64,000 bases of DNA, taken from positions 16,803,366 to 16,867,365 of the forward strand of contig CM037587.1 in NCBI GenBank assembly GCA_021018995.1, read 5' to 3'. This DNA is from Chloranthus sessilifolius (Eukaryota > Streptophyta > Magnoliopsida > Chloranthales > Chloranthaceae). Both the position numbers and the translations under genes were made by a program. The notes under the pieces were generated by a model. The model worked only from the letters and a program-made list of their open reading frames with translations. It made no database searches and was not told the DNA's origin. Below are positions 10,147 to 62,598 of the stretch, piece by piece. Each line of letters opens with the position of its first letter. Position 1 is the first letter of the stretch.

Positions 10147-12698
10147 TGTGATAGCTCGGATTTCGACACCCCAAAATCCGCACCATCAGTGGGCTAGCGC
10201 TAAGGTCGAACCCGAACGCATTACATAGCCTCACGTTGCACAGCGGAAATAAAGTAGAACCATGCTAACTAACCATCATAACGACATAATGGAACCAGTA
10301 CTATTCCACAAAAGCTCAAAACGACAGTTCTAATTCCATATGAATACCTATGGAAAGAGAACCGATGAGGACCACTAGTAAGGACTATTCCTTACTGAAA
10401 CTTGGTTCACCAAAAAAAATTAATTTACAATTATTGTCTAAAACAAGTATGCTTCACATCGTATTAAAATACTACTCTCTCAACCTAAGGCCAGCTATGT
10501 TTGGCATCGCACAAAGAAAACAGCACTCAGGCGGAAGTTCTTCTAGATCCTCACCAGGTGATGACTTAGGATCCTCCCTTTCCAAGATCTCTGTTCCAAT
10601 CCCTTCACCTGAACCTGTGACATGTAGTCGAAGTATGAGCTTCATCTAAGCTCAGTAGGGAAAAACTTATAGCATGTTTATATAACATCAACATATATCT
10701 TATGACATAATGAAGCAAAGTTTTTCAGAATATATGCACAATGTGATTATCATGACATGAAATGCACATACAATGCTTGTTTGAAATTCAAACACATGCT
10801 CTCATTTCATTCCAATATATGAAAAAAAAAAAATTAAAATGTTTTACTTAAAATATTAGAATGAGGAACTATAGCCTCAAGCCCCCGATGGAATACCCAC
10901 CATCGTCGCTTATATAAATCCTTTTTCACATATATTCAAGTCTCAAAAAGGTGGACACTTGGCTGAACATAATTACCGTTATACGGTAAGAGTCACAAAC
11001 CACATAGCACAAAAGTGTACAGATTGTCCGTCATACCGATTGAGTATTCACATAAACTTAAACTGATGTGCATACATATAGTTTATCGCCGTGTAAAGTG
11101 ATAATTATAGTTCATATCAAAGGTCAGAACGAAATGCAAACATCACACCCACATACATAAATCAGAATTAATCTCGAAAGATTCCATAACACTTGCACAA
11201 TTCGGAAACATAAGGATGCACATGCCTTTTTAATTTGAAGTTATAAACGAAATTCACAAGATTGAATCCATTTTTTGCATCATGACATAACACACATGCT
11301 AATTTCGTAAATGCACATGATATCAAGTGTTCCCTACCTCAAAATCTTAACCCGCACGCGCTCAATCCATCGTTTGGGCTTGTCCTTCGTCACACAATGT
11401 CAGGTCACTTAAACATATAAAATCCATGGTTCACACATTAGAACTATACTAAACATACTCTGACAACTTCCCTCAAAATCTCACAATCCAAACTTGACAA
11501 AATTCAAAATCTGGCAATTTCGATCGATTGAATCCCTATCGAAACCCGTTTTCGATCGATCGAAACCTATTTTCGATCGATCAAAACCTGTTTTCGATCG
11601 ATCGAATCTCGTTTCGATCGGTCGAACTCCCCAAAGCATATTTCACCTCTCAATTTGATTGAACGATTCTGCCATTTTGATCGAACGAATCACAAATTCT
11701 ATCGATCGAAAATAATTTCGATTAGTTGAATCCTCTCAGAGACAAATGATTATTACGCTTTTCGATCGAACAAATCCCAATTCGGTCGATCGAAATCACA
11801 TAATTCGATCAATCGAAACTGTTTCGATCGGTCAAATTCCTCAGGAGCTAAATGACAACTAACACAGTTCGATCGAACGAATTTTAATTCGATCAATCGA
11901 AGATATTTTGATCGGTCGAATTCTCACAATAGACTTTTCCAAAATCTTTATTCTATGCATTTCGATCGATCGAGTGTTGAATTCGATCAATTGAAACACA
12001 CTTCGTTCGATCGAAATTCATTTCGATCGAACGAATTCTTTCAGACTTCGAATTCTTCCTTCTTAAGTGCATTTTGATCGATCGAACTATATTTCAATCG
12101 GTCAAAATAAACCTATTCTCTATTCTTTAGTTTTTTCGTATTCTTTCTCTTCTCTTTCTCAAATCAAATCATTTTCTTATGATTCTTTGATTTCAAATTA
12201 AATAAAAATCATAACTAAAGCATATTTCAAAATCTATCCCTAATTTCGCGCCTTGATCCCATCCGAATCCTCGCTCCTTGTTTCTTGGTCGGATTAGGAT
12301 TCCACCATGCGAACAACGGTTGTTCGTCACTCAAAGCCCTCAACTACTAGCTTCGAGGATGGATCGATCACCCATTTAATTCACAGTCGACGCCTGATTC
12401 ACCCTCTCTCCTCTTAACTTCAAATCATAAGCAGTAAAAGAGGGCATTGAATGCAAACCGTTTAGTGGTATTTATTTCCCTTTATAACCAAGCCCTAGGC
12501 TTTGGTACAAAGCGGTTACACCAAGGTTGGGTGTACGCGGTTTAATAGCTCATAACCTAACCTATCTATACGAAATCCGACCCGTTGGATTTGATCTATA
12601 GACATCACATAGTCTATCGATACAGTCATCAACGTACGGATCGTCAGGCACGCATATCGAGGCGTACAATTCATAGGTCAAAACTCAAGGATGTTACA
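10147..12698 (-). mobile_element. Solo LTR, Ty3/gypsy family 1, copy 1
   Basis: The plus strand runs from TGTGATAGCTCGGATTTCG to GGATGTTACA, giving TG...CA termini. It is collinear with the copies at 22359 and 60114 along its whole length: shared blocks include GTGACATGTAGTCGAAG, a CCCGATGGAATACCCACCATCG segment, TTCACCGTG, and CTACCTCA just before the palindrome array. No internal region or second LTR is adjacent, so it is solo. I found no intact 5-bp target duplication. By analogy with Del/Tekay-type LTRs, whose R region has a stretch like CCCTACTGAGCTTAGCTCA, the transcribed strand is probably minus; that is inference. Confidence 0.8.
11518..12108. repeat. Palindrome array, core TTCGATCGATCGAA
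   Basis: Repeats of TCGA-TCGA-TCGA and close variants (TCGATCGGTCGA, TCGATCGAACGA, TCGATCAATCGA) separated by short unrelated spacers. Successive starts near the left edge are at 11552, 11573, 11594 and 11614, a pitch of 20-21 bp. The array sits at the same point of the LTR as the different arrays in the copies at 23894 and 61625, just upstream (minus sense) of the presumed transcribed part. Confidence 0.9.
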
Positions 12699-12941
12699 CA
12701 TCTCCACCGTGTATATTTTGAACCGTGAAATGTGAACCAATGAAAACCGTCAAACTTTGACTTGTGATTTTTTTTTTTAAATCAAAATTTTTTTTTTTAA
12801 TATTAATCTAAACTGCCCACCTGTGCTCCACGTGGCACTCAAAAAGTGTTTTGGGTATCACGTGGAGCTCCACGTGGATCTATGAGGACGGTCACTGTCC
12901 TCCATTGGAGGACCTAACTCCCTATATATATATATATATAT

Positions 12942-13270: not shown

Positions 13271-13287
13271 TATATATATATATATAT

Positions 13288-13647: not shown

Positions 13648-13650
<3 letters not shown>

Positions 13651-20100: not shown

Positions 20101-23100
20101 CTACCGCATAAAACTCATTATCATAGGTGGAGTGCTTTTGCTTCGCCTCATTTAATTTCTCACTAAAGTAGGCCACCGAGTGGCCTTCTTGGCTAAGTAC
20201 TCATCCCTACACCCGATGCATCACATGCAACCTCAAAGTCATTCTTTCCTTAATCTCGGCAAAGGCCTTCATCGCGGCTTTGCTCCATTGAAACTCTCCT
20301 TTTCTTATACAATAGGTGATGGGAGCCATAATGGCGTTAAAGCTTCGAATGAAGCGACAATAGAATGTAGCCAACCCATGGAAGCTACGGACATCGTGAA
20401 TACTCTTAGGCTCGGGACACTCCACAATATCCTTTACTTTTTTCGGGTCCGCAGCCATGCCATCGGCCAAGACGATGAACCCCAAAAAGACAGCGGATCG
20501 TTGCATAAACGAGTACTTCTTGAAGTTCGCTTATAACCTTTCACCCCTTAAAGTCTCGCAAACCAGCCAAAGGTGGGTCAAGTGTTGCTCCTTCTCACAA
20601 CTATAGATCAAGATATCATCAAAATACACCAAAAAGAACTTGTCTAGAAACGACTACAGCTCGGTGCATTAGAAAACCCAAAAGGCATGACCATCCATTC
20701 ATAAAGACCATCTTTGGTCTTGAAGGCAATTTCTCATTCATCATCGGGGCAGATTCGGATTTGATGGTAACCACTCTTGAGGTCTATCTTAGAGAAGATA
20801 GTGGCACCAACCATCATACCCAGCAAGTCGTTGAGCCTCGGAATAAGAAACCGATACTTGACTGTAATCTTGTTAATGGCCCGACTATCCACACTCATTC
20901 GCCAAGTACCCCATCTTTCTTGGGTGTGAGTAGTGTAGGTGCGGCACAAGGGCTTAAGCTCTCTTGAATAAACTCCTTCCGAAGAAGCTCATCAACCTGC
21001 CACATTAACTCGACATGTTCAACCGGATTCATCATATAATGTGGTAAGTTTGGTAGAGTGGATCCAGGAACTAAGTCTATTGCTTGTTGAATATGACGCA
21101 TCGGAGGGAGTTCATCGAGTAAGTCTTCCTGGAAGACATCCACAAATTCTCTCAAAATCGGCTCAACCTCATTAGGGTGTTCCCCCATAGACTCGTCGAA
21201 AGCACGCTCGACGATGATGATAACGTACACCACATTCTCATCCAAAGAAGCTTTCTCAAGCTCCGAAGGGCTCACAATATTGATGGTCTTCAATTGGCCA
21301 TCCTTCTTCTCAACTCTCTTGCCTGATGGTGTTTTGGGAGGCAAGGGGTTTAATTTGATTTTTTTTACCCTCATGCATGAACGTGCACACATTAGACCAT
21401 TCGATGAGGGTCACGTCCATGTCATGGAGCCAAGGCCTACCCAAGATAATGTGGCCCACATTCATCGGCACCACATTGCACCACAAGGTGTCCGAATAAG
21501 AGGCTGATTGTATCGGTACAAGACATATTTGGGATACGAGAATAGATGAGGAGTCGACCCATGCGACTTTGTACGATCTCGAGTGGGCTTCAAGTGTAAC
21601 CCCTAAATGGGTGATGGTGTGTGTCGACAGACTCGACACCACATTGGTGCAACTCCCACTATCCATGATAACCTTACAACTTTTATTACCACACTTGGCA
21701 TAAGTATAGAAAATGTTATCTCTAAGCCAATCATCTCTCTGATTTCATTGAGGTTGTGCAAGGGCGCACCTCACAACCAAAGCACGACCACCGTCATCAC
21801 CGTCCTCATCACTAGGTGTGACATCCGGCTCATATACTTCTTCAACATCTCCTTCTCCCTCGTCAACCTCTCCTTCAACCAAGAGATATCTTTGGAGGTC
21901 TCTCATAAGGCATTGGGCGATAAAGTGGCCAAACTCATGGCACTTACAACACTTGGTTTAAGAACCACCCTTTGAGGATTCACCAACCACACATTCATAG
22001 GAGTGGGTTGTGTAGGCTTAGGAGATGGGTTCTCGACACTAGGCCTCACCTCTCCGGCTCGATGGCCACCAGTATGTGGTTCAAATTGTCTCGCCACCAT
22101 CATTTTCAAGCACTGTTCAAGGTTTTGCACAACGGCGTAGCACTCTTCAAGAGTGTGAATGGGGTGAGAGACCAACTCTTTTTGCAATTTCAATAGCAAT
22201 CCGATGAGGAATCTAGAGAATGTGACTTGAGGATCTTTTGACACATTGGATCTCATCATGAACTCCCCAAATTTGCCAATGTATTCAGTCACGGGCATAC
22301 TACCTTAGAGTAAATTTTGACATTGGCCAAGTAAGCGATGGTAGTATGACAAAGGAACTGTGACAGCCCGGATTTCGGCACCCCGAAACCAGTGCCATCA
22401 GCACGATCCTCTAGGCCGTGCCCCAAGACTATGTACGAAACATTGGTATAACAAGCCATATTAAGACAAAATGGAACAAATACTATACGATGCGGAAGTA
22501 AATTTCTATTCTAAGTATAAACCCAAAAGACGGTTCTACTTTCATGCCACTGCATGAACAGAGAACCGATCCGAACCATCGGTGATAAACAGATCACCCC
22601 AGATGGTTCGCCAAAAAGAATATATCAAAAAATTACATTGTTTATCAAAATAACGACTTGACATACCAAGCCGTACAATGAGTTCTCAAAACTACTCTCT
22701 CAAAGTACTCAGCGGAGTCTCCTAGAATAAGTCCTCAGGAAGGGACTCCAACTCGTCCCCAGGCACGTAATCCAAGTCACCCGGATCCACGTCTCCCGAA
22801 GCCTCGGCCGCTACTAATAAGGGACCTGTGACGTATAGTCTAAAGGGTGAGCTATATCCTAGCTCAATAGGGAACAACACAATGAACATATAAGTCAAAA
22901 ACTCACATATATTCCATGATATTCTAAGCATGATGTGTCTATGCATTTGCTAAAAAACAATTTAAAAGATGGTAATTTGCATTCAAATTTACTGGTAGTT
23001 TGCATGTCTCACTTTACTGTTAATTTATCATGAATGACACTGAACAGGCCTAAAGCAAAACTTAAATCTTCAACTTAAGTAATCCCCGAGCAATATAGCA

Positions 23101-26100
23101 TCGAGCCCCGATGGGATACCCTCCATCGTCGTCTAAATAGACAGTTGTTAATGTATTCCCTAAGAATACGACCCAAGCCCCTTTCTCAATAGGCGACGGG
23201 GTTAAATCTCATCTCAACATCCTTAGGATGTAAATACTGTGTACTTATAGACCTCCTCACTAGTATACGGATTGGCCGCCGTACCGGTCACGGATATCCT
23301 GCAGAGTCAATCATGAGTATCCCGCCACGTCGGTGGGGTATCCTAATCAAACCTCAAATAACAAAAATAGCATGTGCTTTACATATAGTTGTTCACCGTG
23401 TAAATGTGCTATCTTATATTAGTTAGGCCTTAACAGTAGTTATTCAATCTTACTTACATCCCTGGGATGTCTAAATTACTCGCATCACACTGATGCCTTT
23501 ATCACTTCCTCATCCCCTGGGGATGCCTCATTTTCATTAACTTGCTTGGTCTCAGTTATTCGCATCACACTGATGCCTTTATCACTTTCTTGGTGTCACA
23601 CACACACACACCTATTTTTACAAAGATTTACACAGTTAAAACATTTTCAATTTGATCTCTATATCACTACATACATGCTCTTGCAATTAAAGTACATGTT
23701 CAAGGTGTTCCCTACCTCAAGTCTCTGAAGGTCCAAGCATCAAGGTTCCACACGGCTCCTTATGCTTGCTTTCACGCGTACCACCTATGGTACACCATAA
23801 CACATGCAACATATCATTAAAGATGTCATGGAGAAGGTCCTAGACCCTCCATGAACCTCAAGGTCAAATTAGAAAGTCAAGTGAAACTGCCGAAATCGAT
23901 TAATGGATTCCCAAAATCGATTAATCGACCCTAAATCGATTAATCGATTCCCAAAATCGATTAATCGAAATCCAAAATCGATTAATCGATCCCAAATCGA
24001 TTAATCGAAATCCCCAAAATGGTAAAGTCGATTCTCAAATCGAGTAGTCGAAAGTCCGAAATCGATTAGTCGATCCCAAATCGATTAATCGAAATCCAAA
24101 ATCGAATAATCGATTTCCCAATCGATTAGTCGATTTCCCCAAGTCCTTTCTCTCCAGTCACTGGAGGTACCCAGTCGATTAGTCGATTTCCAAATCGATT
24201 AATCGAATTTCAAAATCGATTAATCGATTTCCAGATCGATTAATCGAAATCGGGCATCCTTGCTTTTTCAACTTCTAGACCAAAATCGATTAATCGATTC
24301 TCAAAATCGATTAATCGATTTGGCCAGATTCAGCCCCTTTTCGGGCTGTTCTTCCAAATCTTTTTCCTTATCAATTTTCTTTCTTTTCTAGGTCCTTAAT
24401 CTATCATTCTAACAATACTTGACTGAATTAAACTCATCAATTCTTTATGTATTGAAATCTAATAAAACTTACCTCAATAAATCCCTTAAAGGATTTATTT
24501 GTTGGGTTTGATGGCTAGGGTTCCAGCTTTTCGCTTCAACGGCTCCTCATGCGTTGAATCCAACATTCAATGCTCTAATCTTCTCTTGATTTGCATTAAC
24601 TCCTAGCTCAATAACTCCTCTTGGTTTCTCTCTCTCTCTTCTTAACTCTCTTTCACCAACCAAATTAAGGCAACTAGGCTTATTAAAATCCTTATATCCT
24701 CTCTCCTTAGCTTGTGTGTTAAACACATACACCAGAGATATGTGTACATGACCACTACCAATTTAGACTATACACTACACTCAGGTCATATTGGCATCAC
24801 GTCAGTTCATCCCTTCATGAGTCCACTGTTTGGCCATCACTTGGTCAACCCTACGACTAGTCGGGCACGGATCTCTAGGTCTCTGTTTAACTCTCAAATT
24901 TTCAGGATATTACAAGAACATACCTCTCCGTTAGTCGCTCCTCCATGTCCTCCCAATGGGTAATGGGAGCACGACCCGCATTCGCTCTTATGTGCTCGAC
25001 ATTGATCCAAAAGAGCCGAACTTGACAGTTGAGCTTCATCTTGGCGATTCTAACACATCGCTTATTGTTCATGCTTATACCAATTAAAATGGTGATCCAT
25101 ATGGGAGACCCAATCGAGAAAGGACGTAGGGTTCATTCGTCTATCGAAGGTCGGAAACTCAACTCTAACATTTTTGAGGAGTTTCTCATTCGGATCATAG
25201 TCATCTCCGCGATGAACTACTTCCCTACGATTCTGATTCTGATCATCATGTCGACCATCGTGCTCAAAGCGCAGATCTTCACACCCACAGCGTTGGTCAT
25301 GGTGCTCATCAACCCCTTCCAACCGATCTAATCGGTCGTGCAATCGTTCATTGGTGACACCTAAGGTCGTTTGGATTTGCTCCATGGCACTCATTCTCTC
25401 ATTCATCGTGGCTTGGATGCTCCTAAGAGATCGACAATATCACTCGTGTCCATGGTGATCACGACTCACTAATGCAGGTTCTAAAATGAACAAGCAACTA
25501 TGAACCAAAAGTGATTGAATAATTTTATCAAACACAAGATGTGCACACAAATGAACACACAAATGCCCTAACCTAGAACCTAGGCTCTGATACCAAAACT
25601 AACGCGGGACAACGACCCTAAAATGACTGTGAGATGATAATTGTCAAAATTAAACTAATTAATTGAACGATTAATCACAAATTAAAGCGATTCCTTAGGG
25701 TTTCATGGATATCGGCTTAAGTGACCATGCTTGGTTCGGCTAGGGTCCAATCCGGCACGCTAGATCCGTTAGACTTTCGGGAGGGGCGATCCTAGAGATA
25801 GAACACTAGCATCCTCTAGGTTGGGGCGTTCACTCGTTGATCGATGTGGTTTCTCATAGTCCTTTGCTAGGGTTTTAAAGGGAACGATTAATCGACACAA
25901 TTGGAGTGATCTCGAGCCCAACAACAGTTGTGGATCGATGGGTATGGAAGAGAATCAATCCACAAGGATGGACATTAAGATAGCTCAAGAATTTGGGTTT
26001 TAAGGGTTTTAGGCACTCAAGTAGATGGAAATAACAGCAAGAAAATAGCAAGCAAAATAGGGAAAGAAGGTGAGGAGAAGATCAAGAGCTTAAATGGGCA

Positions 26101-44079: not shown

Positions 44080-44208
44080 CTATATTTGATAAAGGGAAAT
44101 TTGCACTTTCGGCCCTATATGTTTGCGTATTTGCAGAAACGGCCCTATAGTTTCAATCCTTGCATAAATGGCCAGCTCCAAGCCTAGCCGCCTGCACGTC
44201 AAATATAT

Positions 44209-44211
<3 letters not shown>

Positions 44212-44266
<55 letters not shown>
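44212..44266. repeat. (TA)n microsatellite near the MULE left end
   Basis: An uninterrupted TA run directly inside the left TIR. Open frames over it are artefacts. Confidence 0.9.
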
Positions 44267-44268
<2 letters not shown>

Positions 44269-44734
44269 TTCTCTATGCAAGCATTGAATCTAGAATTTCT
44301 GTATCATTTTTTAACAATTTCTATCTCTCTTGGAAAGCGATTTCGAGATTCCACTAAAGGTCGTATAACATAGAGAATACAACAGGCTAGGTAAGATATC
44401 GAGTACAATATCTTTTTAAGTTATTGTTTTCCCAATTTTTCAAAACATTGTAGGTAGTCCAAGATATATAAGTTATCGACCGATATCTTAAAAGAGGGGT
44501 TTTTTTTAAGTTTTTGGATTATGGTTTACGTTAAAAGTCCATCGGCTATATATCTTAGGATATAGGCCCAATATCTTAGGATATCGAGCAATATCCTATG
44601 ATTGATAAAAACGCTAAAGTTTTCATTCCTTTAATTTTTTAATAATATTTTTAAATAATTGTAGCGCTAAGTCAAGTATAACTCTTTATAAACAACTAAT
44701 TTTAATTTTAATTTTGTAAATATTGTAGGTTGAA

Positions 44735-47308
44735 ATGGATGTTCCCCTTCTTTGCCATTTTGATTTCGTACGCGTGAGAGATAATACTTACAACGGAGGA
44801 CATCGGAGGATTGTCACTGTCACGGAGAATATATCATTTGATGAGTTTATAGAGAAAATGTACAAAGTCAGTCGGACACGACCGGAAGAACATTCTATTA
44901 CACTTATTGTTTCATTACGCATAAGGAATGAGGTTGTATTTGCGTTAATTGTCGACTCGACAAACTTATTTAGAGCATATCGTATCGGTGATGGTGTTAT
45001 AAATATTTATATCGAAAAATCATTAGTCACTACTGTAGCAGAAATTTTGCCGTCTTTAGAAACATTTCAACCGTTTAAGGAAACAAACGAAGATGATCAT
45101 GGTGTGGGAACAGAACATTTGATTGAAAATCAAGGAATACGGTATGAAGAGGAGAACATTGTTGCACCGATAATAGCCGACGATGATAGAAATATGAATA
45201 TAGGATTTCGCCCCTACAGTAAACTTTCAGAGCAACCCTATTCAGACATTCCGATGAGTGAAGGCGATGAAGATCAAGGATATTCTCATCAAATGAATCC
45301 GATGCATGATACATCTCAGTTCAACTTCGATTCGGTAAATCAGTGGGAAACGTTTTTAGTCGGCCTTAGTCCATATCAATGGCCTTCCGAACAAATAGCT
45401 TCGGAGCCAACGATAATCGAGCCTTCAACAGAACAGCCTCTCATACATCAAACATTTCCGCATCGGCTAACATTAATCCAAACAACTGCACATCGACGGG
45501 CTCAATCCCAATCACGTAATAACCATCCAGTCGATGATGGTGATAGTGATCCTGAAAATAATGAAGTTCCGCCGTCTCCCACTTCGCGTGTTTATACTAA
45601 TAGGGGAATTGATCAACCTCTGGTGGACGAAGACTATCAACTTAATGACTCGGAAGGAGAGTATATGGATTCAGACGATGAGAAACTGTATGAAGGGGGA
45701 ACGATTACCATTGGTCAGGCGTTTAGAAATAAGAAATCATTTCAAAAAGTTCTTAAAGAATTTGCAATGACAAATAATTTTTAGATTAAACCAATAAAAA
45801 CCAGTCCTCTTCGAATTACTGCGAGGTGTGTTGAAGTAGGATGTGCTTGGCGAATACATGCATCGAAATTAGTAGGCGTAGACACGTTTGCTGTGAAAAC
45901 TTTCCACCCGGAACACACGTGCGGAATGCCAGCTTTTGAAAGCGGACATCGCCAATGTACGACATCGTGGATAGCTTCATTCGTTAGAGATAAACTATTA
46001 AAGGGTTTTGACGAGACTCCTGCTTCAATAATTTTTGATATTGAAAAAAAATACGGTATAACAGTAGGTTACTGGAAAGCATGGAGAGGAAAAGAAATGG
46101 CGTTGAATGACATCCAAGGTAGCTGGAAGGAGCAATTTAAGATGTTACCGTCATATGTTACCGAATTACAGCGGGTCGATCCAGACATACAGACCGAATT
46201 GTATCTCGAGCCTGATAATGCATTTCAGAGATTCTTCGTGGCATTCGGACCTTGCATTCGAAGCTTTCGTAATACTTTACGAAGAATAATTGCGGTAGAT
46301 GGAACGCATTTATGACGATACAAGGAGTGTTGTTAATAGCTACGAGGATGACGGAATAGACATTTTTCCTATAGCGTTGCGTTGTTGTAGAAGAAAAAAT
46401 GAAGACCATTGGACATGGTTTCTTGATCTATTAGGGAGACGTAATCGGTGAATTTGAAGAAATTTGTTTTGATATTAGATGAGAGAAGGTTTGATGGAAG
46501 CAAAGGAAAAGTTTTTCCTAATGCCTTTCACACATCGATGTGACACAGCTCTAAATCTGCTTTGATAAATATAAGGATACAATCTCTAGATCGCTTTTAC
46601 GGGTTGTCGCCGTGCATTTTCGTAAGCAAAATTTAAAAGAATTATGCGAAAAATAGAAGACGACGCCCCGCCGGAATGTACAAAATGGATTAAAGAAATT
46701 GGTGATCATTTCTGGGCACGTGCTTATTTCCAAGGGAGGCGTTATGATATCTTGACAACTAATATAGCTGAAAGCATAAATAGTGTGTTGAAAATAGCCA
46801 GGGAGGAACCGATTGTGAGCATGTTAGAAACTATTCGCACAAAAGTAGCCGAATTTTATCTTCATCGTCAGGAGGAAGGAAATAAAATGACACATGTGTT
46901 AACACCGATGGCAGAAAAACACATAAAAAGAAATTCAGGATGGGCCCGTCGAAAAACGCTATACCATATGGTCGTGATATATTTCAAGTTAAACGTGGTG
47001 ATTACACTCACAGTGTCGATCTAGAATCGCGAACATGTACATGTAGACGTTGGGCTATTCTTGGATTACCATGTTCACATGCGATCGCCGCATTATCCCG
47101 CCGAAACAGAGAAAGAGAGATACCCCAATTTTGTGAACACTGGTTTACCAGTGACTTATTTAGGGAAACTTATAAAGAACACTTTGTCCCGACCGTTGAC
47201 AAGCGCCAATGGACTTCGCAAATAAAAGACATTCAAGTTTTGCCTCCCCACAAAATACGTCAAGCCGTCTCCAAGAAAAGGAGAACAATATCTAAAGGCG
47301 AAGTTCGA
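44735..47308 (+). pseudogene. MuDR-type MULE transposase, broken
   Basis: The N-terminal 349 codons (44735-45781) end at a TAG that interrupts otherwise continuous homology: TNNF-stop-IKPIKTSPLRITARCV continues in frame. The MuDR zinc/DNA-binding part (CAWRIHASK, FHPEHTC) follows to about 45935, then RRIIAVDGTHL with the first catalytic Asp near 46300. Frameshifts follow, with DIFPIAL and NEDHWTWFLD readable to 46425 and VFPNAFHT-like sequence near 46520. From 46644, TTNIAESINSVLK contains the catalytic Glu region. The SWIM zinc finger CTCRRWAILGLPCSHAIAAL lies at 47034-47093, in a frame shifted from the preceding one. The family role is cut-and-paste transposition of the MULE. The conserved order is complete but at least one stop and two frameshifts disable it. 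Confidence 0.88.
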
Positions 47309-47743
47309 TAACAACTACAATGTAAAAATTGTAACAAATAAATTACGTGTAAATTTGTTAATATTTAAAATTAACTTATATTACTTCAAAGTTTGAGATT
47401 GAAAACAGATTGAGATTAGATTAGACCTAGTGGCAATCGAGCTTCCAAATGATCTCATTATAGAAGAGTATTTTTTTTTTTCTCTTTTTCTTTCCTTCAA
47501 CATAAACAGATTAGACCTCAATAAAAGAGCGATCAACATCCGCCAATTAATTAATATATTTTTTTGGACTAATAATTAAGTTTTGCAATTGTGATTGAAA
47601 TATATTGCTGTGCTTCATAATAAATCATTCATTCAAACAGGATTTGAAGTTGCCAAATTCACCCCTAATCTACTAGTGATTGGCATAGAGCCGGACCAAA
47701 GATATCTAGCTTCACAATTCCAAAAGGTAGATGACTTAAAATC

Positions 47744-48016
47744 ATCGGCCGATATCTTAAATCATCGTTCGATATTTTAAGATATCGTCCGATATTTTAA
47801 GTCATCGGCCGATATTTTAAGTAATCGGACGATGATTTAAGATATCGGCCGATGATTTAAGATATCGGCCGATGACTTAAAATATCGGCCGATGACTTAA
47901 AATATCGTTCGATTACTTAAAATATCGTCCGATGATTTAAGCTATCGGCCGATGACTTAAAATATCGGACGATAATTTAAGAAATCGGCCGATGGCTTAA
48001 GTCATCCGCCGATTGG
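47744..48016. repeat. Tandem array, exact 20-bp period, between the two MULE genes
   Basis: Thirteen full units and a partial one. Each unit is ATCGnnCGAT followed by a 10-bp half centred on TTAA (e.g. ATCTTAAATC, GACTTAAAAT). The centre dinucleotide of the first half is mostly GC, also TC, GA and TT. The register is strict: unit starts are 47744, 47764 and so on to 48004. It sits at the shared 3' side of the convergent transposase and protease genes. Confidence 0.95.
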
Positions 48017-48229
48017 AATTGCTTCAAGAGAGGAAGGCTCCGTTGATAAATCAGGCAAGGTGAAATCTAAACATTAGATAAGTAATTGTTAGACAAATAA
48101 TATAAATTGATAACAACGAAAATGAAAATTATACAAGTTAATAAAAATTAATAAAATTAATTATTTACAATTTTATCAAAAAACATCTTTACAAAAGTCT
48201 AAAAAATTTTACAGATATATTTAACTCTT

Positions 48230-51200
48230 CTTCCCAAACGTGCACATTAGATGTCCGATTTCGGCTCTAAATTGTTGCATATGTTTATTGTCGAAATCAA
48301 TAGGCCGCTGTTGGGAGAAGTATTCTATATACTTCAAAATGTATACACCGCAATCCCAACCATTTTCTTGGATCGGGAGAACGACACTGTTGAACGCCGA
48401 TACCTTCCACCTTGATCGAAGTCGACTTCAAACCGATAGCGTAAAGAAGGCGCGGAAGGTGATTCAATAGACATTCTTTATGCGCTTCAAACCTTTTTGA
48501 GCACTCTCGGTCTGCTGGATCTATTAACTTAATTTCTCGATCAACTAATGAAATTATAGCCAACGCCTAGTGGCTATGTTTTTGGCTATACATCGGAAGA
48601 TAAATCTACACATAAACGGAACCGAAATTTTAAATAATAAATTTTATTTAAAAGCCGTTAACGTTAAATAAAGCGAAGTTTAGTATTCAAAAACATACCG
48701 TTCCACAGTCGATCGCGTGAATTCAGCGGATATTATTTGTCAATAGTGGTTCCATCGGCTTTGAATTGTTACGAACATTCCATTCGTCACAATAGGCTCA
48801 CGCCACCTATCGAGGTCATTTGGCGCAATTTATACCTTCATTATCGATATATTTTTTAAATTTTTTCTCGTCTGCCATAAACAAAGTCTGAAACAGGATA
48901 ATATAGTAAGTAAATAAATTAGAAGAAGTTAATCAAGAGTAGTGATTGAAAAGACAAATAAAAGAAACAAAAGAGCTTCCAATAAATATTTGAAACCTTA
49001 CCAGGGCAGACACAGAAGCGAACCAGCTTTTTTCGGCATTGGCCGTAAACATTGAATCGTTTATAACTTCAAGGACTCTCGAGTACGCGTCGATGACTTC
49101 ATTGTCGAGCCACGAGCGTCCTTTGAGAACCTTCAAAAGAGCAACTGTGATCTCAACACCCCTGATAGTATTGACGATCACATTGTCTTCGTTCTCCGGC
49201 CGATTCCAAAAACTAAGCATAGACTTTTGCTCCATTGATTTTGCCCCATCCTCCTCCTCCTCTACAACCAATCTTGGTTTGTTTGTTAATGCTTTAGTGG
49301 TCGGAGACTTTCTCTTCTTACGAGCACTCAAGTCATAACCTTCGGCTTCATTTTTTGCAGATGATAGTTTCACTATAATTATTTTTAATGATGCCGGCTG
49401 TGACTCACGAGAAGGCTGCGTAAGAGGAGCACCATCATCACCCACATCAACCAAGAGTTGTTTAGTAGGTTGAGGAGCAGTAGGTTTTGGGGCAGCAGGT
49501 TTAGTGGCAGTAGATTTATGGGTAAGTTGAGGAGCGGCGGGTTTTGGTTCAGTTGATTGTTGTCTAGGTTGAGCAGTGGGTTTTGGGGCACTTGACTGAT
49601 GGCTTGGTTGAGGAGTAGTTGGTTTTGGGGCACTGGACTGATGGCTTTGTTGAGGAGCAGTGGGTTTTGGGGCAGTAGACTGATGACTTTGTTGATGAGT
49701 GGTGGGTTGAGGGACAGTTGATTGAGGGTAAGTGGGTGAAGGAACGAAGGTGTCAAAGAGAACAGAGGTTAAAATATTATCCTGCATAATAAAAAAAAAA
49801 AATACATTACAAAAAATAAAAAATAAAAAAAACCGCATTATCGACCGACGATGTAACTTATCGGACGATAATTTAAATAGTCGATCGATAATGTACATTA
49901 GCGGACGATAATTTAAATTATCGATCGATAAGTTACATTATCTACCGATAATATAAATTATCGGTCGATAATGTAAATTATCGATTGATAATTTAAATTA
50001 GCGACCGATAATGTAACTTATCGGTTGATAATTTAAATTATCGTCCGCTAATGTACATTATCGATCGACTATTTAAATTATCGTCCGATAAGTTACATCG
50101 TCGGACGATAAGTTCCATCGTCGGACGACAAGCTAATTTTGCATTAATTTATAAAGAATTAATTTTGTTCTAAATTTGAAAAGTCTTGGTTTGATACCTT
50201 TCTTAAATGAGAGATGACCGCATCAAGATCCTTCCGTATTGCTTTATTTTCTTCTTGTAAGGCCTTCTTATCTCTCCCTAGTTGTTCAATGGTGAGTGCT
50301 TGCCCTTTGAGCAGCGTAAATGCACGCCGAAATTCTTTTTTCATTTCTTTCACAGCTATGCGGAGTGTCTTGCATTCTTTTCTTAGTTTTGTCACTTCTT
50401 TGGTTAGGTGCGGTTGCCTAACTGGCTGCTCTCTTATTAGCTGGGGCCTAATATCCGGTTTGCCCTTTGGTTGACGTACAACGACCTCAAAATCATCGTT
50501 TTTGTCGCTGTAATCTTCGTCATCCTTATTGTCGTCATCTCGGCTAATCGACTCTTCGGCTCTTTCTTCCGGACGTGTCGCATGACTTGGGATATCATCA
50601 TATTCATCTATATTTTCTTCGGAGTAAGGCTCTTCTCTTTCCTCGGTCTCTTCCTTCTTATTTTCCATTTCTCTTCGAATAAAAAAGTATCGATCCCATT
50701 TATACTGTAATTCGTGCTTCTCAACTTCAAGCTCTAAAATCACTTTAGACTTAAGAAAATTTTCTCTATATAAATTAGGATTACGGCTGAATTTCGGGCC
50801 TTCCCATTTCATTAGCCTTGGAAATGGTTCTTTAAGTCCAATAGGAGCGGTGGCGACAGCAGGAAAGTGCTCAAACGCTCAAATCTGTAAGGCGATAGTG
50901 CATCCGTAGATGTTGTATTGCCCCTTTTCTAACCTTTTCGCCATTTCCCTTCTGCCACTCACTTTTGATACACTATCTAATAAATTATTGTAAACTATCA
51001 GGCCCCACGGTAACTTGTTAAACTCTTCAATGTTATCTACTAATTCTAAGTACCGTGTGTCTACTTCTTGGTATGTGTCCGGAAGTAAAAAAGAATATAC
51101 GAAAAATAATAATGATAGTTTCAAAAAATCATCGTTGGATAAATCAGCACTGTCAATAATTTCTTCAATACGAGATCTTTTCGCCGGCTTCCCCCGAAAG

Positions 51201-51532
51201 AATTTGTATCGAATAGTTGTTTCCTCTTTTACGGCCACCTTCTCTGACTCAGGTTCCGTCAACATGTTGAGGCCTAAAATCAAGGTTATATCGATCTGTT
51301 GCAGGAGTACATTGGTGTTCTTGACCTTGAAAATATTATCTTCAACCCAAAAACTTAAAATAGCGTCAACCAAGTCTCCAACGAATCCTAATTTCTCATT
51401 CATCCTAAATAGATGACCGAATACTGAATCATCTAATATTTTCTTTCTCTCTTCGTTACAGTGCATGTAAAATTTCCTAACATCAACTCCAGAACATTTT
51501 CCGATGGGCTTTAGAGTCATGGTCATTTTCAA
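48230..51532 (-). pseudogene. Ulp1-like cysteine protease gene of the MULE, with DUF1985-like N-terminal part
   Basis: Minus strand. Exon 1 (51532-50198) encodes a DUF1985-like region (SLLFFVYSFLL, VDNIEEFNKLPWGLIVY), one in-frame TGA at about 50879 where Trp is expected before AFEHFPAV, then an acidic segment and a coiled coil. The donor AAG|GTATC at 50198 and the acceptor TGCAG|GATAAT at 49781 bracket an intron filled by a 20-bp array. Exon 2 (49781-49002) is Pro/Thr/Gln-rich with repeats like APKPTAPQQSHQSS and then GRSWLDNEVIDAYSRVLE, the usual start of plant Ulp1 domains. Later exons reach the catalytic part: His at 48570-48572 followed by TAG instead of Trp, then VDREIKLIDP, a frameshift near 48370, and QENGWDCGVYILKYIEYF with Cys at 48350-48352. 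The family removes SUMO-like modifiers; its role in MULEs is not settled. Two stops and one frameshift. Confidence 0.85.
49838..50137. repeat. Tandem array, exact 20-bp period, in an intron of the Ulp1-like gene
   Basis: Fifteen consecutive 20-bp units (300 bp) of the form TTATCGnnCGATAA plus a 6-7 base linker. Linkers largely alternate between TTTAAA and TGTACA/GTTACA, making a 40-bp dimer. Example unit: TTATCGGACGATAATTTAAA. Same architecture as 47744-48016 but with different flanks. Confidence 0.95.
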
Positions 51533-51611
51533 TCACTTAGTAGGAACTGCAATATAAATAAAAAGCAATTAATAAACAAAAGAAGTGATTTTGAAAAAAC
51601 TACTAATCCCC

Positions 51612-51705
51612 TAACTTACCGATAATTTAAGTTATCGATCGATAATTTAAGTTATCGATCGATAACTTAAATTATCGATCGATAACTTAAATTATCGGTA
51701 AGTTA
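51612..51705. repeat. Perfect 94-bp palindrome upstream of the Ulp1-like gene
   Basis: The sequence is its own reverse complement from TAACTTACCGATAA to TTATCGGTAAGTTA. It consists of 20-bp units ATCGATCGATAATTTAAG/CTTAAATTATCGATCGAT that invert about the centre at 51658/51659. An imperfect extension (CTAATCC on each side) follows. It lies about 80 bp 5' of the Ulp1-like start codon. Confidence 0.93.
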
Positions 51706-53174
51706 TCGGATTAGGTGGGAAACATTGGGGATTACTAAATGTGCTGAAATGTAAAAAAAATAAATTACCTGAAAATGTAATGTGACCTTTGTGACCTTTT
51801 ACCGCTAAGTCGCCGCTCTCTTGTTTTTTTCAGAAAAGTTAAACTTAAAAAGTAACAGTAACTAATGATATGTAAAAGTAGCTTTTATACTCTCTTTTAA
51901 AGGGCGGTGGAAATTTTTTTTTTATATTATTTAAAATAGGTTCTTGCTGACGTGGAGCAGGCGGAGGCGGTTAGGCTTGGAGCTGGTCATTAATGCAATG
52001 GTTGAAACTATAGGGCCGTTTCTGCAAATACGTAAATATATAGGGCCGAAAGTGCAAATTTTCCTTTGATAAATTTTATGTTCGAACCCTATTTAAATAA
52101 AGCAGTGTTTAGGGGTCAGGGGTCTTCTTTTTTAGGGTCTCTTCCTTTGGGGAGCCCTTTGATTTTTCTTAGCATTTTTAGTTTCTCTCAGTTTTTTCCT
52201 TTTATTTTTAAGTATTGTTCTTTCCATTTCTTAATTTTTAGGTCTTAGATTAGTTTAATTTCTGTTTTTGAAGAAGGATTGTACCAATTAGATTAAAGTT
52301 TTCGTAGATTTTGTTAGAGCATATTTATGATATTTTAATTGTATTTTTATTTTATTTTTCAATTATGTCATTCATTTCTAGTGTGTGTGGCTAAATCTCT
52401 TTGAGGATGGGGATCTAATGAACCTCATCCGAGGTATTCATTTATAAAATATAGATCGATGGTTAGGATGTATTATGTATTGGATGTTTGAGGTTTTAAT
52501 GTTTAATTGCTCTCACCGAATTAGTAAATTTCTGATTGCCATCTAAGATAGGGATGCTAGTCCCACTCCCTTGACCTTGGATCTGCAATAGGGAATCTAC
52601 TTCGGGTTCTTTGTTGATAATATTTACGGCATTAATTCATCGTCATTAGGTGTTTCTCTTTTACGGTAAATGTTTTGCCCTATTTTACGGTATTAATTTA
52701 TCATTATTAAAAGTCCCTTTTTCGGTGAATGTTTTGCTTCATTTCCTCTTCAACAGTAGGAAGAGCATACTTTAGATCTGATTTTGTGGATTTAATTATT
52801 TATTTTTCGTAAAAATTTGATTAAGTTCAATATTTATGTATTTTGCATCTTGTGATGATATTGTATCTTAATCATTAGATCTGTATCTTGTAAATGATAA
52901 ATCAAAGATGGGAAGAGTTAGTATCCCTATCCTCTCTTTCATTCCTAGTCAATTTAATTTTATTGCTTAGTCCTTATTTCATCCATCACTCTGCCCACAA
53001 GTATTAACTAGTGTAGTATTGCCTTAGATCTGTAATTTTTTCTTGTGATTAATTATTATTTCCTCTTTTAAATTTTATGGCTAATCCTCGTGGGAACGAT
53101 CTCATACTTTGCACCCACTAACCACAATTCGATTCGTGCGCTTGCAAGTTTAAAACAAATTTAAAATCACAACA

Positions 53175-56304: not shown

Positions 56305-56542
56305 TGATTTTACACTCTAAAACTTACCTTTAGCCATCCGATGAAGGCAATCTGACGGCTACTGTATAGTTTTTATGATTTCAGGTGTTTGTGATCGTTG
56401 GATCTTACAGGAGCATAATTGAGTATAATTAAAGGCTACATGGGAGCATTAAACTATGAAGCCAACGAAAGCACCAAAAATCGTGAAAGAACCGATTGAT
56501 TCAATCAAAGATAAAGAGAACTATAATTGTCACATGTCAAAA

Positions 56543-56725
56543 TCAATCGATTGAGATCCATAATTCAATCAATTAAGTCTTTGACAAATGTTTGCCCCTC
56601 AGGATTTGAATTTAAACTCAATCGATTGAAATATGAAAATCAATCAATTGATTATTGAATTCAAATGAAGCTGCCATTTTTAAAATTTGAATTCAATCGA
56701 TTAAATCTAGTAATTCAATCGATTG
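56543..56725. repeat. Palindrome array in Athila-like LTR 2, core TCAATCGATTGA
   Basis: The same paired array as LTR 1 (43894-44079), partly decayed: TCAATCGATTGA, TCAATCAATTAA, TCAATCGATTGA, TCAATCAATTGA, TCAATCGATTAA, TCAATCGATTGA. Confidence 0.9.
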
Positions 56726-56780
56726 ACTTATATTTGGAAAATTTTATGTCCAAGCCCTATTTAAACAATATTGTGTTTAG

Positions 56781-56996
56781 CAAGGATTACAATTTCAGAA
56801 TACCGATACGTATTGTCCAAGCCCAAAATCGATATGTATCGGTACCGGACGGTACCAGACGATACATTCAATGTATCGTCCGGTAAAATATATGTAAACC
56901 ACCGATATGGTACATTCAATGTACCATATCGGTGAGTGTCGATATCGATAAGTATCGTCCGATACGTATCGGTATCAGACGAAAATTTGATCCATG
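56781..56996. mobile_element. hAT-type MITE with internal palindromes
   Basis: 216 bp, absent from LTR 1. Exact 8-bp duplication GTGTTTAG (56773-56780, 56997-57004). Ends CAAGGATTACAATTTC and, on the minus strand, CATGGATCAAATTTTC, both continuing into ATACCGATACGTAT. The interior has nested hairpins with loop-like TTCA (ATACATTCAATGTAT, GGTACATTCAATGTACC). The 8-bp duplication and CA-GG ends fit hAT. Confidence 0.82.
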
Positions 56997-57212
56997 GTGT
57001 TTAGGGTTCAGTGGTCTCTCCCTTTGGGGAGCCTTTTATTTTTCTTAGCATTTTTAGTTTTTAGTTTTTCCCTTTTCTTTTTCAAGCATTGTTCCTTTAA
57101 TTTTTAGGTTTAGTTTTTATATTAGTTTATTTTTCTACATTCAAGAAAGGATTATACACATTAGATTACAGCTTCGTAGATTTTTGTGGACCATCTATTA
57201 CAGTATTTTAAT

Positions 57213-57406
57213 ATATATATATTTTTGATAACTTGGGTATTCGGGCCTCTTAGAGCACCCGCCTAATCCAAAGGGCACATGCGGACCCCAAATTCAGCAC
57301 ATGATATAAATCCCTAGGGTGGCCTTACGAGGGAGGGGATTCAAACTTAGATCTCCTACTTTTGGAAGTAGATATCTGGCCAGCTCGCCTAACCCCTTGA
57401 GGTTCG
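57213..57406 (-). mobile_element. tRNA-derived SINE
   Basis: Minus strand: the head at 57406 reads CCTCAAGGGGTTAGGCGAGC then TGGCC (A-box-like). AGTTTGAATCCCC (B-box-like) follows about 50 bp later, then a body ending ATACCCAAGTTATCAAAAAT with a TA-rich tail at 57213. Exact 10-bp target duplication GTATTTTAAT (57203-57212, 57407-57416). Absent from LTR 1. Confidence 0.85.
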
Positions 57407-57718
57407 GTATTTTAATGTTGTTCTCTATTTTCATTTTAACCATAATTTTAGTTAAGTTAATCATGCGTAGCTAAATCTTTTTGAGAATGAGGATCTAATG
57501 AACCCCATCTGAGGTATTCATTTATTATAATATAGATCTAAGGTTGAGATATTAGCTTGTCATGGGTGCCTTGTTTTTAATTGCCCTGATGTTATTGTGA
57601 TGTTATAAAATCTGATTGCTATCTACGATGTGAACATTAATCATGCTCCATGATCTTGGATCTGCAATGGTTATTTTACTCTAATCTTCTTTTATACTGC
57701 TCTTGCCCATCCTAGGGT

Positions 57719-58090
57719 AAATTCTGGTTGTCATCTAAGGTATGGATGTTAATCATATATTTATGGGGTGTTAATCACACATCTCCACGACCTCAGATTT
57801 GTAATGTGGAATTTACCCGAGGATCAAATTCTGGTTATCATCTAAGGTATGGGTGTTAATCATACATTCATGAGGTGTTAATCATACATCTCCACGATCT
57901 TAGTTCGGCAATGTGAGTTTACATGAATCTAAGGTATGAATGTTAATCATACATTTGTGGGGTGTTAATCATATATCTCCACGATCTTAGTTCGGCAAGG
58001 TGAGATTTACATGAATCTAAGGTATGTATGTTAATCATATATTCATGAGGTGCTAATCATGCACCCTCATGGTCTCAGATTTATGTATGA
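57719..58090. repeat. Four-copy tandem repeat (~90-106 bp) in LTR 2
   Basis: Units contain ATCTAAGGTATGNATGTTAA, a GTGTTAATCAT segment and CTCCACGATCTTAG; copies start near 57719, 57825, 57922 and 58013. LTR 1 has only one related unit near 52530, so this is an expansion in LTR 2. Confidence 0.8.
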
Positions 58091-58445
58091 TTGGGGTCAC
58101 TATTCATGTGTTTGTAATAATATTATATTTTAATAAATAGATCTGTATTCTGTAAATGATAAACCAACGATGGGAGGATTTGGTATCCTAATCCTCGTCT
58201 TTTGATATCTGTTTAAATTTTATTTTATTGCTTAGTTTTTATTTTATCCATCAAACTCTCAGAATCATAAACTAATTTAAATATTGTGTTAGATCTATGG
58301 TAGTTCTTTTAGTTAATTATTGTTTCCTTTTTAAAATTTTTTGGTCAATCCTCGTGAGAATGATCTCGTACTCTACACCCATTAACTACAATCTGATTCG
58401 TACGCTTGCGAGTTTAAAACACATTTAAAATCACAACAAGTTTTT

Positions 58446-58547: not shown

Positions 58548-58590
<43 letters not shown>

Positions 58591-60113: not shown

Positions 60114-62598
60114 TGTGACAACCCGAATTTCGACGCTCCAAAACTTGGGCCGTCGGCACGATTTTCAAGGCCGTGCCCCAAAAATCTTAATGCAGAACAC
60201 TTGGTACATCCTTTCACCATGCAGAGCAAAGCATACTATCTATATCATATAAAAAGAGATCATAACGGAGATCTCTTTAACCATCATAATACCTATAACA
60301 AAATGGCCCAAAAAGACAGTTCTAACTCCTATGCCAACTGCATGGGACAAAAGAACCGAACCGAACCATCGGTGACATCCACTAATCACCCTCAATGGTT
60401 CGCCAAAAGAATATCACATCTGTATATTACATCACTTTCAAAGTTTAAATGGTCGGACGTACCAAGTCTTACAAAATACTATTAGAATGGCGCAGAAGAA
60501 TCCACTAGAAGAAGTCCTCCGGAGGAGGCTCGTTCTCCTCAAGAGGCATGTAATCCGAATCTAATCTATCCTGGTTCTCTGCTGCAGTGTCTTCACCTAT
60601 ACCTGTGACGTATAGTCGGAAGAGTGAGCTACATCATAGCTCAATAAGGAAAAATGGATATAACATGCGTATTTTCAATATAAACATATATTTCATGAAA
60701 TTGCACATTACATATCTTGTTGTAAGGAAAACACATGATTCAAATGCAATGATAGATTTATGAAGACTGATAAAAGATGTACATTTCAGAATTTCGCTTA
60801 TCATTATTCAAAATGCTTTTATTAACTCACCCACTTAAAACATTCACTTAAATAACCCTCGAGCAATATAGGATCAAGCCCCGATAGAATACCCACCATC
60901 GTCATTCAATTGAACCATTTTTCACATAGTTACAAGTCGTCGAAATTAGAGTGACTTGTCGGATGAAATATAATCGAAGATCGGATATCTCACCGGACCG
61001 GAGCACAAGTTGTACGGATATCCCGCCGTACCAGTAACGAATATCCCGCCGCGTCGGTCATGATTATACCGTCGCGTCGGTCGGGTATTCATATAAAACC
61101 TTAAATCAATAGTGCAAAAACCTACATATAGTTATTCACCGTGAAAGTGTGACAAAAATAATAGTTTTGAAGTTTTTGAAGTTCACACCTACACATATTC
61201 TCACATCAACCTGATGTTACCCTCACATGCATATATCGAAGCTACTTGCAAAGAGCACAAACATGCTTATCAAAATCCGCAACTTACACACACATGATTT
61301 ATCTTAGTGGACACACATATACAACGGATCATTCGTACTCAAAATCATAGCAAGTTCATACTAACACATATTCATAAGTCACATGCACAACACATCCCTA
61401 CGCACGTGTTCACTGATTTCAATTACGCATGTTAAATAGTTTTCCTTACCTCGGCTAAGTCTTTAGGCTCACATAGCTCAAGCTTGCCTCCTGATCACAC
61501 AAAGCTCGGGTCACCTAATATACACAAGTTTATTATCAGAACGTTATAATTGACATAAAATAGAGAGATATTCCATATCCCCAACGTCCCTAACGTCAAA
61601 ACAGAAGACAACTCTAACTGTCAAGAATCGACCAGTCGAACCCCAAATCGACCGGTCGGTCTCCAAAATCGACCGGTCGAATTGAGAATTTGACCGGTCG
61701 GTTTCGCTTAGGAAACCCTGACCCTCATTTTACACCTAAACCGACCAGTCTATTTCCAAAATTGATTGGTCGGATTTCCAAAATCGACCGGTTGGTTTTG
61801 GTTCAACCGGTCGAGACCCAAAACTATAAAGTTTTAATCTCCTGTTTCGTGAAAATCGACCGGTCAATTCTACTTCGACTGGTCGATTTTTCGGGATCGA
61901 CCGATCAAATTTAATTCGACCGATCGAAATCGCTCTTGGGTCCAGCCACTTCATCTCATAACGAAATCGATCGGTTGGTTCAGGATTCGACCGGTCGATT
62001 TTCGCCAACCTTCACCCAGCTAGGGTCTGTTCTTCCCAAACCTATTTCCATAGATTTTTCTTTCATTTCCTTCTCATTTTCTTCTTTCACATACACAATT
62101 TAACTACAATTATACTATACATTTTTATTATAAAAATTCTCACAAATCATACCTTCGAATCGACCGATCCGTCGATCCAAGGCTACACACTCCAAGATAG
62201 GGTTTAACAGCTAGAGCTTCCTGATCTCGCGCGATCCAATGTCAAATTAAATGCTCAATTTCTAACTCTTTGCGCACATAGAATCACACACCCTTCATAA
62301 TTGCTTCTCTTCTTTACTTCTCTTCTCTCTCCTCATAAATCATTCACCAACTAAAATGAGAGAATTAACTTCTCTTTCCCCTTCTTATATTAGTCTTGTT
62401 TTAGGTGTAAGACACATACACCCATATTGGGTGTACTTAACCTACCCAAAACATATACTCATCCTTACACCCAACCCCCCTAGTTTCACTTACTCATAAC
62501 CTACTTGACTTGTCAACTTTTCACCGGTCAAGCACGTGCTCCGACCAGCACGCATCTTGAGGTACTATTTTAAAGGTCGAGATTTTCTGAGGCGTTAA
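60114..62598 (-). mobile_element. Solo LTR, Ty3/gypsy family 1, copy 3
   Basis: 2485 bp from TGTGACAACCCGAATTTCG to GAGGCGTTAA, with an exact 5-bp duplication TCAAC (60109-60113, 62599-62603). It is collinear with the copies at 10147 and 22359 (AGAACCGAACCGAACCATCG, CCTGTGACGTATAGTCG, CATATAGTTATTCACCGTG, ATAGTTTTCCTTACCTCG). The probable transcribed strand is minus. Confidence 0.88.
61625..62000. repeat. Palindrome array, core ATCGACCGGTCGAT
   Basis: Copies and variants of TCGA-CCGG-TCGA; the first starts are 61628, 61648, 61669 and 61690 (pitch 20-21). Variants include TCGACCAGTCGA, TCGACTGGTCGA and TCGACCGATCGA. It occupies the same LTR position as the TTAA- and TCGA-centred arrays of copies 1 and 2. 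Confidence 0.93.

What the first reader, a model, noticed from the sequence alone, without database searches (positions are those of the whole stretch)
11518..62000. Three homologous solo LTRs carry arrays of TCGA-NNNN-TCGA with a different central tetramer in each copy
At the same point of one LTR family, copy 1 (11518-12108) repeats TCGA-TCGA-TCGA, copy 2 (23894-24320) TCGA-TTAA-TCGA and copy 3 (61625-62000) TCGA-CCGG-TCGA. The outer TCGA arms, the 12-bp palindrome length and the 19-22 bp pitch are kept, while the central palindromic tetramer has switched and become homogeneous within each copy. The surrounding LTR is collinear, so the array position is inherited but the word is not. This looks like a fast-evolving recognition code: array-wide conversion under selection to stay palindromic, as expected for sites of a homodimeric DNA-binding protein or a self-pairing transcript. 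I know of no named element feature that covers this.
Basis: partly seen in the sequence, partly recalled or inferred. Interest (0 to 1): 0.9.

Follow-up and report, generated by a model that had tools for sequence, protein, structure and literature searches.

The report
Helix-phased palindrome arrays in plant LTRs
Three related, very old pieces of a plant jumping gene each carry rows of a short mirror-symmetric DNA word at nearly the same positions, but with a different middle in each piece, which suggests that a protein sits there in a fixed lattice while the word it reads changes from family to family.

Summary
The arrays are real. Three ~2.5-kb solo-LTR-like copies carry 22, 17 and 14 called sites of TCGA-YYRR-TCGA type; the commonest centres are TCGA (13 of 22), TTAA (12 of 17) and CCGG (7 of 14). 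(1) Sites fall in blocks, with 19-23 bp steps inside and 41-54 bp gaps between (7 of 11 gaps are 50-54). In the first ~250 bp, 9-10 sites lie at positions equal within 2 bp in the copies, although spacers there are no more alike than shuffled ones in two of three comparisons. (2) Centre differences are nearly all transitions (63 of 65, against 42-49% in the LTRs), so the centre is held to YYRR. (3) Another LTR family (X) has TCAATCGATTGA at 22-bp steps with 53-54 bp gaps just upstream of a TATA-like site, and a MULE with a VANC-like DUF1985 ORF has ATCGNNCGAT at exactly 20 bp. Best reading: helix-phased platforms for a dimeric DNA-binding protein acting on LTR promoter or silencing. Precedents: Sirevirus repeated motifs, VANC targets. 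The genome-wide test could not be run: the genome search did not complete (15 tries).

The parts
10147..12698 (-). copy 1: solo-LTR-like element (inferred sense = minus strand), no clear TSD
   Evidence: alignment; flanks; ends and TATA-like site at sense 213
11520..12105 (.). copy 1 array: 22 called sites, modal word TCGATCGATCGA
22359..24914 (-). copy 2: solo LTR nested in a minus-strand gypsy element, flanks GGAAC/AGAAC
23896..24318 (.). copy 2 array: 17 called sites, modal word TCGATTAATCGA
60114..62598 (-). copy 3: solo LTR, flanks TCAAC/TCAAC, one end TTAA instead of a TG/CA end
61628..61998 (.). copy 3 array: 14 called sites, modal word TCGACCGGTCGA
43668..44093 (+). X1: 5' part of another LTR (continues at 52074 to 53174, split by the MULE) with six perfect TCAATCGATTGA sites at 43894, 43916, 43969, 43991, 44045, 44067; three 4-mismatch matches left out
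56307..58438 (+). X2: second copy of that LTR, six sites at 56543, 56565, 56618, 56640, 56693, 56715 (three exact; one 3-mismatch match at 56488 left out), 31 bases before TATTTAAA at 56758; LTR end followed by a PBS-like GCGCCACTGTCG
44094..52064 (.). MULE with ~100-bp TIRs, 9-bp TSD TTTGATAAA, MuDR DNA-binding domain, SWIM finger and a DUF1985 (VANC-like) ORF on the minus strand (50879-51532)
47744..48013 (.). MULE array M1: 14 sites of ATCGNNCGAT type, 14 of 14 in one exact 20-bp register
49840..50126 (.). MULE array M2: 15 sites (up to 2 arm mismatches), 14 of 15 in one exact 20-bp register
51634..51683 (.). MULE array M3: 3 sites ATCGATCGAT at 20 bp, just upstream of the DUF1985 ORF, inside a perfect 94-bp palindrome (51612-51705)

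Best explanation
Each array is a rigid platform for a homodimeric, sequence-specific DNA-binding protein. One dimer reads one 12-14 bp palindrome: the two outer half-sites directly, the central tetramer as a pyrimidine-pyrimidine-purine-purine step (shape or partial contact). Dimers sit every two helical turns, and blocks are about four or five turns apart, so they face one side of the helix and can act together. Bound, the platform controls the LTR promoter, most likely by keeping this stretch active and free of silencing. When the protein's preference shifts in a retrotransposon lineage, the sites of that lineage's array follow one by one, keeping their places. Shown: sites, blocks, register over the first ~250 bp, YYRR constraint. 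Inferred: a protein, its dimeric state, its effect on promoter or silencing, coevolution. The confidence is for a DNA-level dimer platform; for anti-silencing in particular I would give about 0.3.
For: Counted back from the sense-first site, positions are 0,20,71,91,111,132,186,205,225 (copy 1), 0,21,71,91,112,132,185,205,226,245 (copy 2), 0,20,71,90,112,131,184,203,225,246 (copy 3); shuffling the step order gives P 0.001-0.004 per comparison. With positions predicted from copy 2 alone and no site calling, the true register scores best of all shifts of 3-60 bp either way: 69 of 80 arm bases in copy 3 (next 62), 68 in copy 1 (next 65). Spacers are 0.45, 0.45 and 0.52 identical against 0.47, 0.46 and 0.44 for shuffled ones (copies 1-2, 1-3, 2-3), while arms match 64/72, 55/72 and 69/80. 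Centre differences are 18:1, 16:0 and 29:1 transitions to transversions, Fisher P 7e-6 to 2e-8 against the LTR; a caller that ignores the centre finds YYRR in 42 of 44 sites inside the arrays, 2 of 20 outside. Gaps are in helical phase (R 0.60, P 0.013 for the three copies; 0.68, P 0.0006 with X). In copy 2, 33 of 34 arms are intact while no centre holds a CpG, so the word is not deamination decay. Family X repeats a 22/53 grammar 31 bases before a TATA-like site. A MULE in the window has similar arrays around a VANC-like gene.
Against: No protein, binding, methylation or expression data. Only three copies of the family; genome-wide copies could not be reached. Copies 1 and 3 have many imperfect sites, and arm identity is partly built in because sites were called by likeness to the consensus. 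For copy 1 the true register beats a one-site shift only narrowly (68 against 65). Of copy 2's and copy 3's nine later sites within 250 bp, only eight have a partner in copy 1, and beyond ~250 bp register is not kept. A test that offsets stay bounded is not significant (P 0.06, 0.09, 0.12). The phase test is not independent, as copies share ancestry. In a de novo scan for perfect palindromes copy 1 is not above the densest Markov control and copy 3 forms no cluster. The family's coding part is unknown. In L the array lies about 380-390 bp downstream of the predicted TATA, where an RNA role stays possible.
Confidence: 0.6

Rival explanations
1. RNA-level function: transcribed palindromes pair with neighbours into hairpins that feed small-RNA production, stall reverse transcription or serve packaging or splicing.
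For: Very strong predicted folds; the array lies in the predicted transcribed leader of L; LTR palindromes of maize Sireviruses attract small RNAs (passages of PMC10760457, citing Bousios 2016, which is not held).
Against: Any palindrome array folds well. Sense-strand deviations are not wobble-friendly (A>G 1, T>C 15). At deviating bases, RNA pairing with the neighbouring site is kept in 16 of 40, 0 of 9 and 13 of 32 checks (copies 1, 2, 3; 0.40, 0.00, 0.41), close to shuffled site order (means 0.34, 0.00, 0.43; sd 0.05, 0.00, 0.06, which corrects an index slip). Family X has its array upstream of a TATA-like site.
Confidence: 0.18
2. Array turnover: slippage, unequal exchange, block duplication or conversion homogenises a degenerate repeat by chance in each lineage; the word has no meaning.
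For: Copy 1 has extra blocks with repeating site types (block-ending sites TCGG or TTAG in 5 of 6 blocks), which look duplicated. Block numbers differ (6, 4, 4), and register is lost beyond ~250 bp.
Against: 9-10 sites keep register over 225-246 bp; YYRR and arms outlast saturated spacers.
Confidence: 0.13
3. CpG decay: all arrays began as one CpG-rich word and methylated CpGs decayed differently.
For: Deviations within copies 1 and 3 are largely C>T and G>A in equal number (16 and 17 of 60 over all copies).
Against: Copy 2 would need both bases of the central CpG changed at every site while 33 of 34 arms stay intact; getting from TCGA to CCGG needs the reverse direction.
Confidence: 0.04

Closest known systems
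Sirevirus repeated motifs (RM boxes), Ty1/copia (PMC2829016: section 9 and passages read)
   Same: High-copy palindromic CpG-containing boxes in LTRs, a different word per family with a shared core (e.g. CGGTCTGACCG, CGGTCGACCG, CGGACCGTCCG). Family X's word shares the core CAATCGATTG with Tnd-1's ACAATCGATTGT and ends 31 bases before a TATA-like site; [quoted passage not shown]
   Different: Core there is CGG-CCG; here TCGA-YYRR-TCGA. In L the array is downstream of the predicted TATA. I saw no mention there of block register or helical phase (section and passages only). The L lineage is not identified; X has a PBS-like site of Athila/Tat type (recalled).
VANC target arrays of Arabidopsis VANDAL MULEs (PMC5735166, PMC10398659: abstracts and passages seen)
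   Same: Short family-specific motifs in tandem repeats in noncoding parts of TEs, changing between related TEs and evolving synchronously; [quoted passage not shown]
   Different: VANC motifs (YAGTATTAY, AGTTGTCC/AC) are not these words and not palindromic; in the window the first has no match and the second two single matches, at 61008 and 3772. L is an LTR element, not a MULE. The window's own MULE fits better.
Papillomavirus E2 binding sites (recalled, no call)
   Same: 12-bp palindrome, fixed 4-bp arms, variable 4-bp centre read through DNA shape by a homodimer.
   Different: Analogy of format only; no relation.

Membership tests
Sirevirus RM boxes | many palindromic boxes clustered in the LTR | tested here: met
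   22, 17 and 14 sites in L; 6 and 6 in X
Sirevirus RM boxes | CGG-CCG core signature | tested here: not met
   words are TCGA-YYRR-TCGA and TCAATCGATTGA; the Tnd-1 box also lacks it
Sirevirus RM boxes | cluster shortly upstream of TATA | tested here: inconclusive
   met in X (31 bases, both copies); in L the array starts 378-391 bp downstream of a predicted TATA, itself unproven
Sirevirus RM boxes | Ty1/copia Sirevirus coding region | not testable with these tools
   L copies are solo LTRs; no internal region seen in the window
VANC target arrays | located in a VANDAL-type MULE with a VANC (DUF1985) gene | tested here: not met
   for L and X: LTR elements. For arrays M1-M3 it is met in outline: DUF1985 E=1.7e-9, MuDR domain 1.8e-6, SWIM 1.3e-10
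VANC target arrays | tandem short motif in noncoding regions, differing between related TEs | tested here: met
VANC target arrays | bound by VANC and hypomethylated | not testable with these tools
   no functional data
Solo LTR | 5-bp TSD and TG...CA ends | tested here: inconclusive
   copy 3 TSD exact but one end TTAA; copy 2 TSD with one mismatch and TG..CA ends; copy 1 TG..CA ends, no clear TSD

The most novel reading that the evidence does not exclude
Several different plant transposon groups in one genome (two LTR families and a VANC-bearing MULE) carry helix-phased lattices of near-palindromic words of one kind, a shared grammar with private words: a sequence code by which LTR elements, like VANDALs, recruit lineage-specific dimeric anti-silencing proteins, with each word changing in place at all sites.
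Probability: 0.22. Interest if true: 0.87.

Novelty: new variant of a known kind. Interest (0 to 1): 0.6.

Why it matters
If it holds, LTR retrotransposons keep a rigid lattice of binding sites through near-total sequence turnover while the word changes. That gives a direct, countable test of cis-trans coevolution between transposons and DNA-binding proteins, extends the VANC idea to LTR elements, and offers short arrays as baits for the unknown binder.

Tried and rejected
Whole-genome collection of LTR copies: the genome search 'own' did not complete. Pattern scans of viral (2 stretches) and prokaryote contigs (12 stretches) served only as a background count. A literal search for the words found 25 papers, 20 listed; none of the listed titles is about LTRs, one is on tandem repeats of Capsicum (PMC10211496), and I opened none. 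Simple CpG decay, array turnover and strict RNA pairing were considered and set lower. My neighbour-pairing count skipped late sites through an index slip; one search replaces it. LTR ends used were off by 1-9 bases; one search gives the corrected geometry. I lowered my main confidence from a draft 0.62 to 0.60 (and raised two rivals by 0.01 each) after the control showed how narrowly copy 1's register beats a one-site shift.
Full report
What is there. The window looks like plant DNA full of nested transposons; the species is not known to me. Three regions of about 2.5 kb align end to end: copy 1 (10147-12698), copy 2 (22359-24914) and copy 3 (60114-62598). Copy 2 lies inside a minus-strand gypsy element (integrase domains), between ORFs I take for gag pieces, with flanks GGAAC/AGAAC; copy 3 has flanks TCAAC/TCAAC; copy 1 shows no clear target duplication. 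They are 46-56% identical over aligned columns, so they are distinct old families of one lineage (called L here). I read them on the minus strand: a TATA-like site at sense position 213, 219 and 210, the array starting at 594, 597 and 601, a donor-like AGGTAWG at 441 and 445 in copies 2 and 3 (none in copy 1), and CACAGGT at 2080, 2085 and 1992. TATA-like strings occur elsewhere in the copies too, so the orientation is an inference.

The sites. Allowing up to two or three mismatches to TCGAYYRRTCGA I called 22, 17 and 14 sites. Modal centres, read on the sense strand, are TCGA 13 of 22, TTAA 12 of 17 and CCGG 7 of 14. Perfect TCGA arms are 25 of 44, 33 of 34 and 16 of 28. Centres agree more within than between copies (3.18 against 1.58 of 4; 0 of 2000 permutations reach the difference). 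A caller that ignores the centre gives 44 sites, 42 with a YYRR centre, against 2 of 20 matches outside the arrays, so YYRR is not a product of the consensus. The strict paired pattern occurs 10 times in the window, 9 of them in copy 2, and never in 100 shuffles.

Grammar. Sites come in blocks, counted from the sense-first end: 2-4-3-4-4-5 (copy 1; its last block includes one 32-bp step), 2-4-5-6 (copy 2), 2-4-4-4 (copy 3). From the sense-first site, within 250 bp, 8 of 8 later sites of copy 1 have a partner within 2 bp in copy 2 and in copy 3, and 9 of 9 of copy 2 in copy 3; seen from the other side, 8 of 9 sites of copies 2 and 3 have a partner in copy 1. Shuffled step orders give P 0.001-0.004. 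Beyond 250 bp the copies go apart. A control that needs no site calling, placing copy 2's positions on the others, scores highest at shift 0 in both (copy 3: 69 of 80, next best 62; copy 1: 68, next best 65, a one-site shift). The spacers between matched sites are not more alike than shuffled spacers for copies 1-2 and 1-3, and only marginally for 2-3 (0.52 against 0.44, maximum of 200 shuffles 0.53), while arms match 89%, 76% and 86% (partly built in by the site call). So the site positions seem to outlive what lies between them. The gaps fit whole helical turns (R 0.60, P 0.013; with family X R 0.68, P 0.0006), with the caution that the copies are related. A test that the small offsets compensate each other is only suggestive (P 0.06-0.12).

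Word change. At matching sites the centres differ by 63 transitions and 2 transversions, against 42-49% transitions in the LTRs. The three words therefore are variants of one YYRR centre. Deviations inside a copy are C>T 16, G>A 17, T>C 15, A>G 1 and 11 transversions, of 60: largely the mark of CpG decay on both strands in copies 1 and 3. Decay cannot make copy 2's word: 33 of 34 arms are intact while no centre holds a CpG.

Other arrays in the window. A de novo scan for perfect palindromes of 10 bp or more (128, against a mean of 64 in 20 Markov sequences) showed two further kinds; in that scan copy 1 gave 5, no more than the densest control, and copy 3 no cluster, because their sites are imperfect, and three other clusters of 3-4 I took for chance. 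Family X, two LTR copies 87% identical over their first 475 bp, carries TCAATCGATTGA in pairs at 22 bp, pairs 53-54 bp apart, at the same positions within 1 bp in both copies (six exact sites in X1; three exact and three with 1-2 mismatches in X2; four weaker matches left out), 31 bases before TATTTAAA in both. X2's end is followed by GCGCCACTGTCG, like the primer site of Athila/Tat elements (recalled). A MULE (44094-52064, 9-bp duplication TTTGATAAA) holds three arrays of ATCGNNCGAT type at exactly 20 bp (14 of 14 sites, 14 of 15, 3 of 3 in register), around a DUF1985 ORF (E 1.7e-9). DUF1985 is a domain of VANC proteins (passage of PMC5735166).

Interpretation. A DNA-bound dimer on a helix-phased lattice explains palindromy, YYRR constraint, register and phase, and the promoter-side position in X. 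RNA folding is strong, but deviations do not lean to wobble pairs, neighbour pairing is close to that of shuffled site order, and X's array lies upstream of its TATA-like site. Pure array turnover does not keep register, though block duplication seems to have added blocks in copy 1. The in-place change of word suggests coevolution with a binder; this step is inferred.

Known work. Sirevirus LTRs carry palindromic repeated motifs that differ by family around a shared core; family X's word shares CAATCGATTG with the Tnd-1 motif (PMC2829016 section 9). VANC targets are tandem motifs that vary between related TEs (PMC5735166 and PMC10398659 passages). Maize Sirevirus palindromes attract small RNAs (passages of PMC10760457). 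In the listings of my eight literature searches (at most 20 papers shown per search) I saw no title on register-conserved, phase-locked palindromes with switched centres; most subscription papers are not in that library.

Limits. Three copies, no genome-wide set, no functional data.

Noticed in passing
window 44094-52064: VANDAL-like MULE with 9-bp TSD, DUF1985 (VANC-like) ORF and three exact 20-bp arrays of ATCGNNCGAT type with differing central dinucleotides; palindromic, unlike the Arabidopsis VANC motifs.
   Followed up: partly
window 43668-44093, 52074-53174 and 56307-58438: Second LTR family (X) with TCAATCGATTGA pairs at 22/53 bp upstream of TATTTAAA, and a PBS-like site after X2.
   Followed up: partly
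window 22725-22949 (minus): Possible short acidic peptide (ending [16 protein letters not shown]) inside the LTR after a CACAG/GT splice-acceptor-like site, with look-alikes by eye in copies 1 and 3; a donor-like site at sense 441-445 in copies 2 and 3 hints that the array may lie in a leader intron. No database relative.
   Followed up: partly
window 51612-51705: Array M3 lies in a perfect 94-bp palindrome just upstream of the DUF1985 ORF.
   Followed up: no
window 54355-56245 and 59538-63999: Large inverted duplication (79-82%) that frames copy 3.
   Followed up: no
window 11552-12105: In copy 1 the block-ending sites share a G at the last centre position (TCGG or TTAG) in 5 of 6 blocks, a sign of block-wise duplication.
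   Followed up: no
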